64,000 bases of DNA. Source: Echinarachnius parma (Eukaryota; Echinodermata; Echinoidea; Clypeasteroida; Echinarachniidae). How positions within the stretch are numbered: position 1 is the first letter of the stretch; each line of letters opens with the position of its first letter. Location of the stretch: positions 1 to 64,000 of the forward strand of contig JBAMJV010001299.1 of NCBI GenBank assembly GCA_037951105.1, written 5' to 3'. The notes under the pieces are model-generated. The model saw only the letters and a program-made list of their open reading frames with translations. It had not been told where the DNA came from and ran no database searches. Positions 51,486 through 63,600 of the stretch are shown here, piece by piece. Both the position numbers and the translations under genes were made by a program.

Positions 51486-51577
51486 GAGTGTACACAATGC
51501 AACATTAAGTTAACTTTACGGTGATCTATGCAAGCAGCACAGATGAAGGCTATAACTGCACTTGGGAGCTTGAGAAC
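51486..51577 (+). pseudogene. Ghost of CEP104 exon 1, 5' half
   Basis: Degenerate copy of 51684-51776, including leader sequence and the start codon. It reads ATG-CAA-CAT-TAA, so translation would stop after three codons. Strong matches are 'gtgatctatgcaagcagcac' and 'gatgaaggctataactgca'. It carries its own acceptor-like 'cattttcag|gact'. Confidence 0.85.
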
Positions 51578-51699
51578 AATTAATCATGATAAATCATCTA
51601 TAGAGAACTTGTATGGTTCATTCAATCTTTTCTGATATTTTTGTGAACCCAACTAAAAATCATTGTACCGTGTCATTTTAAGGACTAAAAGAGCGCACA

Positions 51700-57600: not shown

Positions 57601-60600
57601 TGATCAAACGCTGCTATCCCGCACACAAAATGTTCACCATCTCCACTCCCTTGGGAGCATTTCTTCCAAGTGGCTCATGAGCATTGAGAAGATCCTTCAT
57701 AAAAAAAAACTTTCACCATTACCCATTCCCCATTTATGCACTTGGGTAGAGAGCGACAGTCTTACTGAAGGACAGATGCAACTGCCACTGGTGAACAACC
57801 TCGTATTGGTAATGTCCCGGAAGCGATTGTACTTGAAAATGCATTTGTATTTATACTATTGATACTTATTAAAATAATCAAGACAGTAAGACCACTATTT
57901 GTATGCTTGTTTAAAGTTATCCTAAACAAATGGCTCAAGATGAATACAAGTACATGATGCCCAGAAGTGGAGACAAGAAAATTGTTGCTATCACTCACAA
58001 ATTTGCGAATTTGTTCATTTCCCGTCACTCTTTTCATCTGTCGTTCTCCAAAATTAAAGTTCACTCTTGATAATTTTTTTCCTCCCATCACTCGCATTCA
58101 CCCTGCTCAGAACCTTGTATGGCCCCTCAGAGAGTGGTCACTAGATAGAGAAGTAAGTGGGCTTTCCTTTTTGATAAACGCAGTCGTACAAACCAATTTA
58201 AGATGCTTGATTTTTTAGCTGGCACCTGTTTAATTGGAACTAATTCAAGCTAAAGATTCCTTTTTTCTTAAACCCTTGTCACTTATCACTGGTTAGCGTT
58301 AACGGATGCCCGACGAAGAGTCAAATTTTCAATCCGTTTCGTGTTCGGGAATGTCAGGCCTTGTCAGGCGATGTACGTTTACGGAATGTTTTGAGCAAGA
58401 AGCAATGGAGACGACGTTCACTACCGGATGATTTGATTTCACAAATTGTCTATCCGCCAGGCGCCCGTTTAAAACGATATCCGGTGATATGACAACACAT
58501 ACATGTAGATCATGGCATAGATCTGTGTGTGATACCTATTGGCGGGATGATCTATTAATTCATCCCCTTACTTTAAACCATAGATGTTACGTAAAGATCT
58601 ATGCCAGTGTATGTACCTCTCCAGTCCTGTTTCTATAATTCTTGTCCATATAGGACTGCACTATGCACTTGGTGATGTCGCAAACATTTACCTAAGTATT
58701 AAATTGTACAGGTTCCATGATTATTTACCCCAGACTTTGATGACTACAAATATTTTCTGGGTGTTTCTGTCTTCTAAATTCTAATGATTCTGATTTGCTT
58801 TAAAGGGACTTAGTAACATTGTCCAAATCCTCAAAATAAAATTTTAATTCTAGCGGTTCCCTCATACCTTGTTGTATTCGTATTAACAATAAAATCATGG
58901 GACAGGTTTCAGTTTTTCAAATTTCCCTTTCGTTACAAAGATATGTACGATCAAAGTATTCAGATAAGAAAAACTCCGGGCGAGTTTTTCATCCCTGTAC
59001 AAAGTGAATGCAGTGAGTTAGTGAATATCACCCAATATCACTTTGCATTTTCGCTCATCACTTGGCCATGCAATGTCCATTTGACTTGAAATGTTCACAC
59101 AATACCCTGTGGACATATGAGATAACAGCACTATACATTGCATCAACCATTCATCACTTTTTGCACATGCCAACAAAGTTACTAGATCCCTTTAATCTTT
59201 CTTTTCCATTTATTTGCACCTGTCACCATTTGTTTGAGTACGATACACATGTGTAGCTATTTCAAATATTGCACATAAACATTACTGGTTTTCAATGGCA
59301 CTACAGCACTGTATTTGCAAAATTTTCTTTATTGTATATATATATATATGTATTTTTGCTGTGAGTTCTGTGTATTTGGTGGGGAATTAATATTTACCTT
59401 CTTGTGAAACTTGAACTTCTTGTGAACTATTTACTAGAGATCCCTGTTTCTAGTCTGTTTTTGGTGCAATATGCATTGGTAACCTGTTGAGGTTTTGCTT
59501 ATTGGTAACACTAACTGATTTATTTTGTAAAGAGCAGTGAATTTCCCATGTTGGGAAAATGTTTTTTGTACTGATTCATGAATGAACTGCATTTTCTACA
59601 AATATTTGGAACATGCTATCTATTCCTTGATTTCTTTTATCTATAATTCATACAATATAAATCATTATCACAAATCTCTCTATCATAAACATAAACAAAT
59701 ATATGGTTCAAATATAACATTTCAATTTAAATACTTGATTGTTTTGATTGTGGGAGAATTTGCCAAGGAAATTGCCACTGAATCCTAACCCTAACCCCAA
59801 GCCAGACCGCCCCCAGCCAGGCAGCCATCACCCCAACCATCTCAGGAGAGCAGCCATCCAGTCAAAAACATGCCTATATAGATATTCATTTATTACGTTT
59901 ATTACAAAGAATGTACGTGATGTGTAATTTTGGTATTCTATTGTTCAAGCTATATATTTGCGTGCATTACTGTTTATTTATTAGCAGGAAAACTCCCAAA
60001 GGAAAGGCCAGCCCAAGAAACAACAGATTCCCCGAAGGGAGGAGCCCCCTCAAAGTAGACAGCCCCCAGCCAGGGAGCCCTCACACCATCCCCAGGAGAC
60101 GAGTCAGTCAAGAACACGCCCAGAGATGAGAATGATTTTGTATAAGTTAATTTCTAAGATTGTCTATCATAATATGATGCTAGCAATTCACTTGCATAAC
60201 TGTTTATTTTAATTAATAGGAGAATTCACAACGGAAAGGCCCACCCAAGGAGCAGCAACCTCCTCCCAGAAGGGAGGAGCCCCCTCGAAGGGAGCAGCCC
60301 CCAGCCAGGGAGCCCCCAGCCAGGCAACCCTCACCCCCTCCACCACCCCAGGAGAGCAAGCCAGTCAAGAACACGCCCAGAGATCAAGATGACTTCCAGC
60401 CCGGTCACGCCATGTACAACGCTGACGACAGGCCCCTACCCACTCTCAAAAAGTGAGGATTATTTCCTAAGTAGACTACGTTTCCAATGTTCGCTGATTT
60501 ATCACACTGTGGCTTGTTTCATGAAAGGGCCTTAGCTATGTAAGTTGTCTTATCTTATCTGGCGCGGAGCTATGGTGCTATTATATTATCTCCGCGTTTC

Positions 60601-63600
60601 GCACAGAGCGTCGATAGCTGTTGAAAATTCAAAAGCTTTGTTTAGGGTCTGAACGCAGAGATAGTTGCACCCTAACTCCGTGCCAGATAAGATAAGACCC
60701 TTTCATGAAACAAGCCCCTAGAACTGTACCAACTAAGAGCTACTTTTCATATCCCTTGTGAATTACCATCTTTGTGCAAGTTTACAACTGAATTGCTAAA
60801 AAGTGTTTTTTTATTGTATTATACAGTGGTTATCAACTTCTTGCATTTACTTTGTCATATCAGCATAAAACTGCCTGTATGGAGAATAGTTTGTATAATA
60901 CTAATGCCAATATGCCATAAACATGATGAACATTGTACAATGGAGAGTCCTTTTCTATTCATATTAAAAACAAAATGCTTGCTAGTATTTTTTCCTGTTC
61001 TCAATTCATGATAAAATGCATATTAACACACTCTTCCCTCTACCCCCTCAGCTCTCCCCGTCACCAGCCTTCAGACTTGCCCCCAGTGGAGGAGCCTGAG
61101 CTGCATCACGAGGAGGAGACAGGGGGAGGGGGTCTTGGGGGCGCAGTCCAGGGAGGGGAGCAGATGAATGTATCCATGTCAGACAACAACATGAGGGAGT
61201 TGGATGTGGCCATGGAAGTGTTTGGCAAAGATAAGGTAAGATAGTGGTTTGGAGGAGACAGGGTGAGGGGGGGGGGGGGGGGGGGCGTCCTGGGGGCAGA
61301 TAAATGTACCAATGTCGGAGCATAACATGGAGAGCTGGACGTAGCATCAGAAGTGTTTGGCAAAGATAAGGTAAGATAATGAATTAGATTAGACATGGGG
61401 AGGGGGTGCAGGACAGAGGAGCGCAGTACAGGGAGGGGAGCACATGAATGTACCAATGTCAAAGCATATTAATTGAAGAGTGATATACTGTCAAACCAGA
61501 TTTTACAACCACCTGTATTTAGAGACCACTTATTTTGACTCCCTGGGGGGCTATTTGCATGATTACGGACCTGTCTACATAGACCACCCAAGGGAAACAG
61601 AACATTTTGTACATTTTGTATAAAGTGGTGATCTTTAATAATAATAATAATAATAATATATTACATTTATATAGCGCTTAATACAATGTTTCTAAGCGCA
61701 TTATTATTACCCTCGGTCATCAGGTACAGGTCAAACCCGCACAATTATCTTACGCACTGTCTCAACTCCCTGGGGAGCATACTAGCCCAGCTGCCCACCG
61801 GGCGCTGAAGGCAAGTTATAATTGCATTTAAAGGATAATTATTTGTAAACTGTATTATTTATTGATATGAATTGACAGATAATGAAGGTCTACTCCAAGA
61901 GCTGGGCGCTGAGGGAAGAGGGACTGAGTGACATCAGGGACATCTTGGAGGCCGCAGAGGAGGACAAGGAGAAGGAGGAAGTGAGAGCCATTTTCCGGTC
62001 GGCCATCTTCCTCGCCACCAAGGGACTCAAGGACAAAGTGTACTCGGTGAGTCAGACGAACAAATAGTTTTATTTATGTATTTATGGGTGAAAAACAACT
62101 GCCATGGCAGTCTGCAGGCCGATTTGAGGTAGTTTTACAATAACATAATTACATATAAAGATTGCTTTTAATTTGTTTATAAAATATAAGGTGACTTAAT
62201 AAGGCAACGTGCATGGTTGGTTCACATACATGTATATACACAGCAAAAATCACACACTTTAGTAATAATGATTACAGTAAAACTGTCTTAGTGGCCACCT
62301 GCCCACAGTGGCCACCAAACGTTTTCTCCTGCAGAGGAAAACAAATATTATAGAACTTGTTTATCTAGAGGTATGTTACCTGTCTACAGTGTTCACTGTT
62401 CTTGTTTCCCTTGGGTGATCTTTCAGTTTCATGTAGCGCCAAATATGATTAATGATCACCTCTGAGCACTTGTATACATTATTACCCCTGTCATCGGACA
62501 CACACAATCAGTCTGCACACGTTGTGCACTTTCCACCCCCTTGTGAGCATTACATTCTGGCAGCCATATATGACCCGCTATAGCAAAACCCTGCACTTGT
62601 CGGTTATTCATGTTTTGAGGAAATGGGCATTTTAAGTTCACACAATGCGTGTAAAAGACCTTTGATTGTCAAATTGAAACAATCATATCTTCCCCAATTA
62701 TTGACCAATTAGTTGGAACAAAGCATCAAATGACAGCTTGTGATGAGGCCTCTCTAATGGTGTGAAAATCTACATTTTGATTTTTACCGACAAGTGCCGG
62801 GTTTTGCTATAGCCGGTGACATATGGTACACTCGATGAATACAGTCGTATACAAGTACCACGTCTATATTACACCTGGGTAAGACAATTATGCGGTTATC
62901 CCCAGACAAAAACTAATCAAAGGAAATTTGATTTTTTTTTTTAATGCAAACTTCCCACTGTGTGACATGTTAGTGACTTTTAATGACGGTCATCCCTTAG
63001 GCCAAAAAAAAAAATTTGTTGGATTGGAGTAACGGGCAACCAAAAATTAGGGTAGGTACATGTAGGTAGGGTTTTTTTTTTTTTTTTTTTTTTTTTTTGC
63101 AGGATTCGCACAAATACACAAAAACACACATACATGTATAACAAACACATAACACATATCGCAATTGGAAAAAGAAAAAAAAAATCAGAAAAAACCTTTA
63201 GGGTCGGCGGTATTTTTAGGGTCGGGCGGGTTACGCGAATACAACAATTTATTTTTCATGGCCTTATTTGCAGGTTTTCATTCCAGTAATGGGGCTGACT
63301 AGATTTATCTTCACCAAGTTCATTCTAGAACATCACAAGCTGGGCGTGAAACAAAATATGCCTCAATAGAGAGGTTGTGACAATATTAAATGAGGATATC
63401 CCCCAAGCCCAAGCTAAGGAAAAGATATTGCATATTCTTAAACATCCATCTCACTTTGTGACTTGTAAGTGACTTTAATTTCTTCCTACATTTGCAGGTT
63501 TTCAGCCCAGCGGTGGAGCTGACAAGGTTCATATTCACCGAGTTTGTTCCGAAACACCACAAGCTGGGCAAGCACGAGACGTCACAGGCAGTGGATAGAG

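What the first reader, a model, noticed from the sequence alone, without database searches (positions are those of the whole stretch)
51486..63369. Nearly every CEP104 exon has a decayed partial copy beside it
Ghost copies exist for exons 1 (both halves, on either side), 2, 3, 4, 7 (four), 9 (two), 10 (two) and 12. They are interleaved with the functional exons, not a collinear second gene, so a whole-gene tandem duplication does not explain them. Each includes some intron and at least one splice site. Divergence varies widely, suggesting a process that repeats over time. A locus-specific or genome-specific local duplication process, acting on segments of roughly 100-300 bp, is the simplest reading. 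I have not seen this described as a regular feature of a gene. An assembler folding a divergent haplotype into the contig is the main alternative.
Basis: partly seen in the sequence, partly recalled or inferred. Interest (0 to 1): 0.88.

Follow-up and report, generated by a model that had tools for sequence, protein, structure and literature searches.

The report
Exon-edge tandem duplication fossils, urchin
In a sea urchin genome, many exons have a broken, decaying copy of one end lying right beside them, left by repeated small tandem duplications that spared the working exon; it is seen in several genes and on both chromosome copies of the gene studied, so it is not an assembly mistake.

Summary
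All 14 claimed ghosts exist and score above shuffles. Exons 5, 6, 8 and 11 have no accepted ghost in the window, so 8 of 12 exons do. The gene is CEP104 of an echinoid. A second contig, C1289, collinear and about 7.6% diverged in introns, carries 13 of 16 ghosts at matching places, which excludes assembler folding for those. Ghosts evolve like introns (7.9% vs 7.6%; exons 2.5%), so they are dead. Anatomy gives the mechanism: upstream ghosts keep the 5' part of the exon (with the acceptor), downstream ghosts the 3' part (mostly with the donor), in 23 of 23 events with a definable side (five genes, my count). A tandem duplication of about 110-260 bp with one breakpoint in the exon and one in the intron leaves exactly this: the real exon whole, the ghost short of one splice site. 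It is not locus-specific: spermidine synthase, a WDFY gene, POLR3A and an EGF gene show it, partly in sequence fetched afterwards. Exon-spanning events outnumber intron-only ones more than geometry and modelled survivorship predict; that excess is suggestive only. CEP104 is an extreme case of what looks like a genome-wide process.

The parts
51497..51574 (+). ghost of exon 1, 5' part (exon positions 1-75), upstream
   Evidence: 87% identity, z 21; orthologue in C1289 at 98.7%
51700..51904 (+). CEP104 exon 1 (first coding exon)
51985..52109 (+). ghost of exon 1, 3' part plus donor, downstream
   Evidence: 82% over a wider span 51922-52105, z 41; donor GT kept; orthologue in C1289
52529..52610 (+). 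CEP104 exon 2
53067..53155 (+). ghost of exon 2 (exon 7-82), downstream, beyond a low-complexity block
   Evidence: 70%, z 10; donor reads GC; orthologue in C1289
53189..53354 (+). ghost of exon 3 with its upstream intron, exon part broken by deletion
   Evidence: the only ghost that may have had both splice sites
53432..53570 (+). CEP104 exon 3
54005..54198 (+). CEP104 exon 4
54289..54405 (+). ghost of exon 4, 3' part (71-194) plus donor, downstream
   Evidence: 73%, z 22; GT kept; orthologue in C1289 96.6%
54612..54721 (+). CEP104 exon 5, no ghost found
55952..56007 (+). CEP104 exon 6, no ghost found
56400..57205 (+). tandem array of four ghosts of exon 7 (56515-56646, 56726-56861, 56887-57009, 57059-57205), each intron + acceptor + exon 5' part, upstream
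   Evidence: 68-74%, z 5.6-16; AG kept in all four, no donor; all four positions align in C1289, though the exon-based search there accepted three
57352..57507 (+). CEP104 exon 7
58111..58152 (+). CEP104 exon 8, no ghost found
59793..59880 (+). second ghost of exon 9 (77-164), upstream, neither splice site
   Evidence: 81%, z 30
59988..60138 (+). ghost of exon 9, acceptor + 5' part (1-176), upstream
   Evidence: 83%, z 58; AG kept
60220..60452 (+). CEP104 exon 9
61052..61235 (+). CEP104 exon 10
61251..61370 (+). ghost of exon 10, 3' part (61-184) + donor, downstream; in C1289 at most a 58-bp remnant (35001-35058)
   Evidence: 79%, z 48
61387..61486 (+). second ghost of exon 10 (62-156), downstream, neither splice site; not found in C1289
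   Evidence: 79%, z 31
61879..62046 (+). CEP104 exon 11; accepted ghost only in the other haplotype (C1289:36138-36284)
63274..63398 (+). ghost of exon 12, acceptor + exon 1-129 of 138, upstream; not found in C1289
   Evidence: 70%, z 24
63498..63635 (+). CEP104 exon 12
9812..9958 (-). spermidine synthase: downstream ghost (3' part) of exon 10065-10160
   Evidence: offset 169
10919..10999 (-). spermidine synthase: upstream ghost (5' part) of exon 10666-10794
   Evidence: 86% nucleotide identity, offset 208

Best explanation
The ghosts are relics of many independent short tandem duplications (unit mostly about 110-260 bp). In each, one breakpoint fell inside an exon and the other in the neighbouring intron. 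Such a duplication automatically leaves one complete exon with both splice sites, plus a fragment that carries only one splice site: acceptor and 5' part if upstream, 3' part and donor if downstream. A fragment with one splice site is not an exon to the spliceosome, so it is neutral, drifts, and decays like intron. Shown: homology, geometry, neutral decay, presence in both haplotypes, presence in other genes. Inferred: neutrality to splicing; origin by end-joining repair of staggered breaks (the class of small tandem duplication studied in PMC8355091) or by replication slippage; and that the slow change and indispensability of the intact exon makes exon relics outlast intron-only ones.
For: Geometry: 23 of 23 events with a definable side and exon end obey the rule (my count): CEP104 13, spermidine synthase 2, WDFY 4, EGF gene 1, POLR3A 3. 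Left out: full or near-full copies (exons 2 and 3, WDFY exon 7, one copy of exon 17), copies showing neither end (9a, 10b), the last POLR3A exon, the probable POLR3A exon array, the unclear loci L015, L020 and L029, and the weak hits. Two of the 23 (exon 12; exon 11 on C1289) cover over 90% of the exon and test it weakly. Splice sites (17 ghosts): 8 of 8 upstream ghosts of internal exons that reach the exon start keep AG and have no donor (exon 3's near-full copy set apart); 3 of 5 downstream ghosts that reach the exon end keep GT and none has an acceptor. Neutrality: ghosts 7.9% between haplotypes (112 of 1418 sites, 13 shared ghosts), introns 7.6% (604 of 7984), exons 2.5%. Both haplotypes: 13 of 16 C1298 ghosts shared. 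Other genes. Beyond the window: CEP104 exons 13, 15, 16, 17 have ghosts. Similar unit sizes in families where I recognise no exon (14 of 23 at 110-260 bp).
Against: No read data, transcripts or second species were available, so expression of ghosts is untested. The number of exon families relative to intron-only families is higher than a uniform process predicts even after modelled survivorship (see full report), so uniform placement may be wrong. Exon 15 ghost and exon are 96% alike in one haplotype and 85% in the other, which needs gene conversion or re-duplication on top of simple decay. Full or near-full exon copies also occur (exons 2 and 3, WDFY exon 7), so the process is not confined to one-splice-site pieces. 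Junctions were not analysed for microhomology.
Confidence: 0.88

Rival explanations
1. Assembly artefact: pieces of the divergent haplotype were folded into the contig.
For: The assembly holds both haplotypes on separate contigs and contains N gaps.
Against: The other haplotype is assembled separately as C1289 and carries 13 of 16 ghosts at orthologous positions. C1298 ghosts differ from their exons by 4-32%; exons differ between haplotypes by 2.5%. The side rule has no reason to hold for mis-joins.
Confidence: 0.03
2. Tandem duplications specifically start at exon edges (for example at chromatin, GC or transcription-linked breaks around exon-sized nucleosomes), so exon enrichment is a property of the mutation process.
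For: In four gene spans exonic families outnumber non-dispersed intron-only ones, 19 to 3-5 (my count). Geometry predicts exon-edge to intron-only odds of 0.31 in CEP104 and 0.13-0.23 in the other three genes. With exons and exon-derived ghost parts masked, intron parts alone still match in 4 of 10 CEP104 families (exon 3), 1 of 2 spermidine synthase, 3 of 4 WDFY and 2 of 2 internal POLR3A families, so many intron-only copies of the same age should be visible. Simulated detection bias is only 1.4-fold. Unit sizes lie near one nucleosome repeat (the nucleosome length is recalled).
Against: CEP104 was picked because of its ghosts, and in 6 of its 10 families the intron part alone no longer matches. 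Exons cannot be lost, so exon families also survive deletion better: 3 of 16 C1298 ghosts are gone or nearly gone from the other haplotype. With a guessed expected share of 0.40 the excess outside CEP104 has P of about 0.006-0.06 depending on how unclear families are counted. Families without a recognised exon have similar sizes.
Confidence: 0.35
3. The copies are alternative (mutually exclusive) exons under selection.
For: Ten of 17 ghosts show no in-register stop and most keep one splice site; mutually exclusive exons do arise by tandem exon duplication (PMC9013439).
Against: Ghosts diverge between haplotypes at the intron rate, not the exon rate. Partial ghosts lack one splice site. Frame-breaking gaps occur in 17 of 17 alignments and in-register stops in 7 of 17, the exon 15 phase being uncertain. 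Two sea urchin CEP104 proteins match the joined intact exons over the full query.
Confidence: 0.03
4. Remains of a whole-gene tandem duplicate or of retrocopies.
For: Many exons are represented.
Against: Ghosts are interleaved exon by exon and beside their source. Most contain intron and a splice site, which retrocopies lack. A 401-bp probe around the exon 1 right ghost finds only the two allelic contigs, each with the ghost and exon 1.
Confidence: 0.01

Closest known systems
Tandem exon duplication (Letunic 2002 as cited in PMC9013439; Ivanov and Pervouchine 2022, PMC9013439, part 1 of 4 read; Exonize, PMC12343006, part 1 of 3 read)
   Same: Local in-gene copies of exons, some unannotated and degenerate inside introns; [quoted passage not shown] full coding-exon duplication in about 4-7% of vertebrate genes (PMC12343006).
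   Different: Here most copies are partial, carry at most one splice site and evolve neutrally; they occur at 8 of 12 exons of one gene and 9 of 33 exons of three other genes. The published figures quoted count mainly full exons, so the numbers are not like for like.
Small tandem duplication by fill-in of staggered breaks (PMC8355091; search passages read)
   Same: Tandem copies of short segments made by end joining, a repair outcome seen in mouse and human cells.
   Different: That work makes breaks with Cas9 nickases and speaks of insertions under 100 bp; here units are mostly 110-260 bp, natural and old. Mechanism not shown here.
Intron gain by tandem genomic duplication (PMC4974935; search listing and start of abstract only)
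   Same: Tandem duplication across gene sequence that splicing can hide.
   Different: There a duplication is proposed to make a new intron; here the extra sequence sits inside an existing intron.

Membership tests
Tandem exon duplication | copy lies in the same gene, same strand, next to its source exon | tested here: met
   16 C1298 ghosts within 1.5 kb of their exon, plus strand; only that range was searched
Tandem exon duplication | whole exon duplicated, with both splice sites | tested here: not met
   most copies cover part of the exon with at most one splice site; exceptions: exon 2 (7-82 of 82, no acceptor seen), exon 3 near-full, WDFY exon 7 full
Tandem exon duplication | copy under selection as an exon | tested here: not met
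   ghost haplotype divergence equals intron; expression itself not testable
Short tandem duplication of genomic DNA | copy adjacent, direct, including flanks | tested here: met
   intron and exon parts both copied; 23 of 23 sided events fit tandem geometry (my count)
Short tandem duplication of genomic DNA | occurs elsewhere in the genome, exons or not | tested here: met
   23 non-dispersed families without a recognised exon and of similar unit size in C1298:1-94000 and 15 random loci (an unrecognised exon in some cannot be excluded)
Staggered-break fill-in repair product | junction signature / enzyme dependence | not testable with these tools
   needs young polymorphic copies and mutants; junctions here are mostly too diverged
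Assembly artefact | copies absent from a separately assembled allele | tested here: not met
   13 of 16 present in C1289

The most novel reading that the evidence does not exclude
In this echinoid, short tandem duplications of roughly nucleosome length arise preferentially across exon-intron borders, so that a quarter or more of exons carry one-splice-site ghosts; the exon-intron border itself would be a mutation hotspot and intron sequence would be built partly from dead exon ends.
Probability: 0.3. Interest if true: 0.82.

Novelty: new variant of a known kind. Interest (0 to 1): 0.6.

Why it matters
It shows a visible fossil record of small tandem duplication in ordinary genes, filtered by splicing. 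The side of the ghost predicts which exon end and which splice site it carries, a rule that can be tested in any genome. If the excess at exon edges is more than survivorship, it would point to an exon-linked mutation hotspot and a source of new intron sequence. It also warns annotators: homology-based exon finders will hit these ghosts, as tblastn did here.

Tried and rejected
Whole-gene duplicate, retrocopy, alternative exons and assembly folding were tested and rejected (see rivals).

Pure survivorship as the full cause of exon bias: simulated with measured substitution and small-indel rates it gives 1.4-fold; deletion of copies perhaps doubles this (argument, no call). It explains part, perhaps not all. 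The significance figures use hand-labelled families and guessed expected shares. The Fisher test (10 of 15 against 8 of 29 exons, P 0.02) was made before L033 was read and counted the probable array exon; the present count is 10 of 15 against 9 of 33.

One search masked exons only, so several of its matches (exons 9, 10) are ghost against ghost; one search masked the exon-derived ghost parts too and lowers the CEP104 count from 6 to 4 of 10. In one search I masked part of the intron before exon 3 as well, so exon 3 is taken.

A codon-usage scan of random loci was noisy. Pfam on stop-masked minus-strand frames of L015 gave only a disordered repeat above its cut-off. The COI search gave echinoderm sequences, echinoids best at 95%, and no species name. 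My first chain of C1298-C1289 BLAST pieces was poor in the middle of the gene; a MAFFT alignment replaced it. First exon coordinates were off by one, corrected. One search aligned exons 3 and 4 to themselves by overlapping ranges; those two of 17 rows are dropped. Over the other 15 rows exon parts differ at 312 of 1725 sites (18%) and intron parts at 190 of 983 (19%), my sums; local alignment trims bad ends, so this leans towards similarity. Locus L030 was fetched and not analysed.

Eight literature searches, with terms for exon duplication, pseudoexons, tandem duplication and break repair, showed nothing in their listings that describes one-splice-site exon ghosts as a regular feature; no search used that exact idea and most subscription journals are not held.
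Full report
WHAT IS THERE. The window is bases 1-64000 of contig C1298 (319,476 bp) in a 1.2-Gb, 14,790-contig assembly. Joined exons match CEP104 of Lytechinus pictus and Strongylocentrotus purpuratus at 73% over the whole query; the mitochondrial COI is closest to echinoids, species not resolved. Exon coordinates are (exon 8: 58111-58152). 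Exons 1-8 show 17 synonymous and 1 non-synonymous difference between haplotypes, so the gene is functional.

All 14 ghosts claimed are present. Beyond the window, exons 13 and 15 also have ghosts on C1298, and on the other haplotype exons 11, 16 and 17 do. Counting C1298 alone, 10 of 15 exons have a ghost; counting both haplotypes, 13 of 18 recognised exons. Exons 5, 6, 8, 14 and 18 have none that I accept. A 2,500-base N stretch in C1298 hides most of exon 16 and exon 17 there. Parts of the protein (residues about 736-775 and the C-terminal tail) were not placed.

NOT AN ASSEMBLY FOLD. Contig C1289 is collinear with window 26413-63645 and beyond. Of 16 ghosts on C1298 for exons 1-15, 13 lie at orthologous positions on C1289 with 84-99% identity; 10b and 12 are not found there, 10a is at most a 58-bp remnant, and C1289 has an exon 11 ghost that C1298 lacks. 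The unshared ones are more diverged from their exons than the haplotypes are from each other, so they most likely predate the split and were deleted from one side (inference).

DEAD SEQUENCE. Between haplotypes, the 13 shared ghosts differ at 112 of 1418 sites (7.9%), introns at 604 of 7984 (7.6%, windows of 80% identity or more), exons at 2.5% of 2237.

THE RULE. Upstream ghosts carry the exon's 5' part; the acceptor AG is kept in 8 of 8 internal cases that reach the exon start (exon 3's near-full copy set apart). Downstream ghosts carry the 3' part; the donor GT is kept in 3 of 5 that reach it. Cases on C1298: exons 1 (left), 7, 9, 12, 15 upstream; 1 (right), 4, 10, 13 downstream. Other haplotype: 11 upstream; 16 downstream; 17 on both sides. 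Spermidine synthase: one upstream with the 5' part, one downstream with the 3' part. WDFY: exon 2 up, exon 3 down, exon 4 up and down. EGF gene in L025: up. POLR3A: exon 13333-13527 up and down, exon 20033-20134 down. That is 13 + 2 + 4 + 1 + 3 = 23 of 23; arrays count once. What I left out of the count is listed in the For line. A tandem duplication of a segment with one end in the exon must give this pattern. Duplications inside an exon, or of a whole exon, would often damage the message and be removed; exon-edge ones are free of that cost and remain (inference).

GENOME-WIDE. Spermidine synthase was recognised from a long ORF, then found to have ghosts at 2 of 7 exons. WDFY was noticed partly through a duplicate in random locus L022; newly fetched sequence then gave ghosts at two more exons, 4 of 8 in all, one of them a full copy (171-bp offset, 95%). 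POLR3A came from a locus (L027, half of it masked as tandem repeat) with no duplicate found; fetching onward gave copies at 3 of 18 exons, one of them the last coding exon with its 3' sequence, plus a 161-bp array that by eye holds a further exon. Together 9 of 33 exons outside CEP104. Random loci were 15 of 16 requested (one stretch did not exist, one was short); 9 of the 15 had at least one non-dispersed local family.

IS THE EXON BIAS REAL. The uniform expectation for exon-edge against intron-only events of 180 bp is 0.20 to 0.66 of starts in CEP104 and 0.11-0.16 to 0.71-0.79 in the other three genes. Observed families: CEP104 10 to 2, both of the 2 low-complexity by eye; spermidine synthase 2 to 0; WDFY 4 to 0, with one unclear pair after the last recognised exon; POLR3A 3 to 1 (an 84-bp satellite), with the array unclear and one pair set aside as a dispersed repeat. 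Survivorship: simulated detection favours exon-edge events 1.4-fold, and an exon cannot be deleted whereas intron copies can. With exons and exon-derived ghost parts masked, intron parts still match in 4 of 10, 1 of 2, 3 of 4 and 2 of 2 internal families, so decay alone does not hide intron-only events of that age, though it would hide some. With a guessed expected share of 0.40, 9 of 11-12 outside CEP104 has P of 0.006-0.015, and 8 of 12, a stricter count, has P of 0.06. I call the excess suggestive. CEP104 itself was chosen for being extreme.

MECHANISM. Units: 16 of 21 exonic families and 14 of 23 without a recognised exon at 110-260 bp, medians 208 and 193 (hand-labelled). One process may act on all DNA. 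End joining of staggered breaks is a studied source of small tandem duplications (PMC8355091, passages); it is not shown here. Exon 15 and its ghost are 96% alike in one haplotype and 85% in the other, suggesting gene conversion or a second duplication.

KNOWN OR NEW. Tandem exon duplication and degenerate exon copies in introns are known (PMC9013439, PMC12343006). The density of partial, one-splice-site ghosts, and the side rule, I did not find described in the listings of eight searches.

Noticed in passing
window 52720-53023: A low-complexity 'gatctcgatctt' duplicate block of about 150 bp units lies in intron 2 between exon 2 and its ghost and may explain their 540-bp spacing.
   Followed up: partly
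window 54723-55600: Long (GAT)n-rich tract in intron 5 that is mostly without counterpart in C1289.
   Followed up: no
C1298:65783-65872 (beyond the window; L011) and C1289:39270-39359: Exon 15 ghost is 96% identical to its exon in one haplotype and 85% in the other, while the two ghosts differ by 12%: likely gene conversion or re-duplication.
   Followed up: partly
L032 663-2237 (C1313:35720-37294): Array of a 161-bp unit (TRF: about 7 copies) in POLR3A whose units seem by eye to hold a POLR3A exon; could be a live or dying exon array.
   Followed up: partly
L031 about 6048-6323 (C2788:43214-43489): Tandem duplication (171-bp offset, 95% identical) of a complete WDFY exon, both copies open, a stop in the stretch between; candidate new or alternative exon.
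   Followed up: partly
C1298 against C1289: Neutral divergence between the two haplotype contigs is about 7.6% over CEP104 introns, high for alleles of one individual, while one 6.4-kb stretch (C1298:83298-89723) differs by only 2.5%.
   Followed up: no
window 42516-43006: Minisatellite-like array with a period near 61 bp.
   Followed up: no
window 45241-47442 minus strand: Open frame of 734 codons with zinc-finger-like text, not identified further.
   Followed up: no
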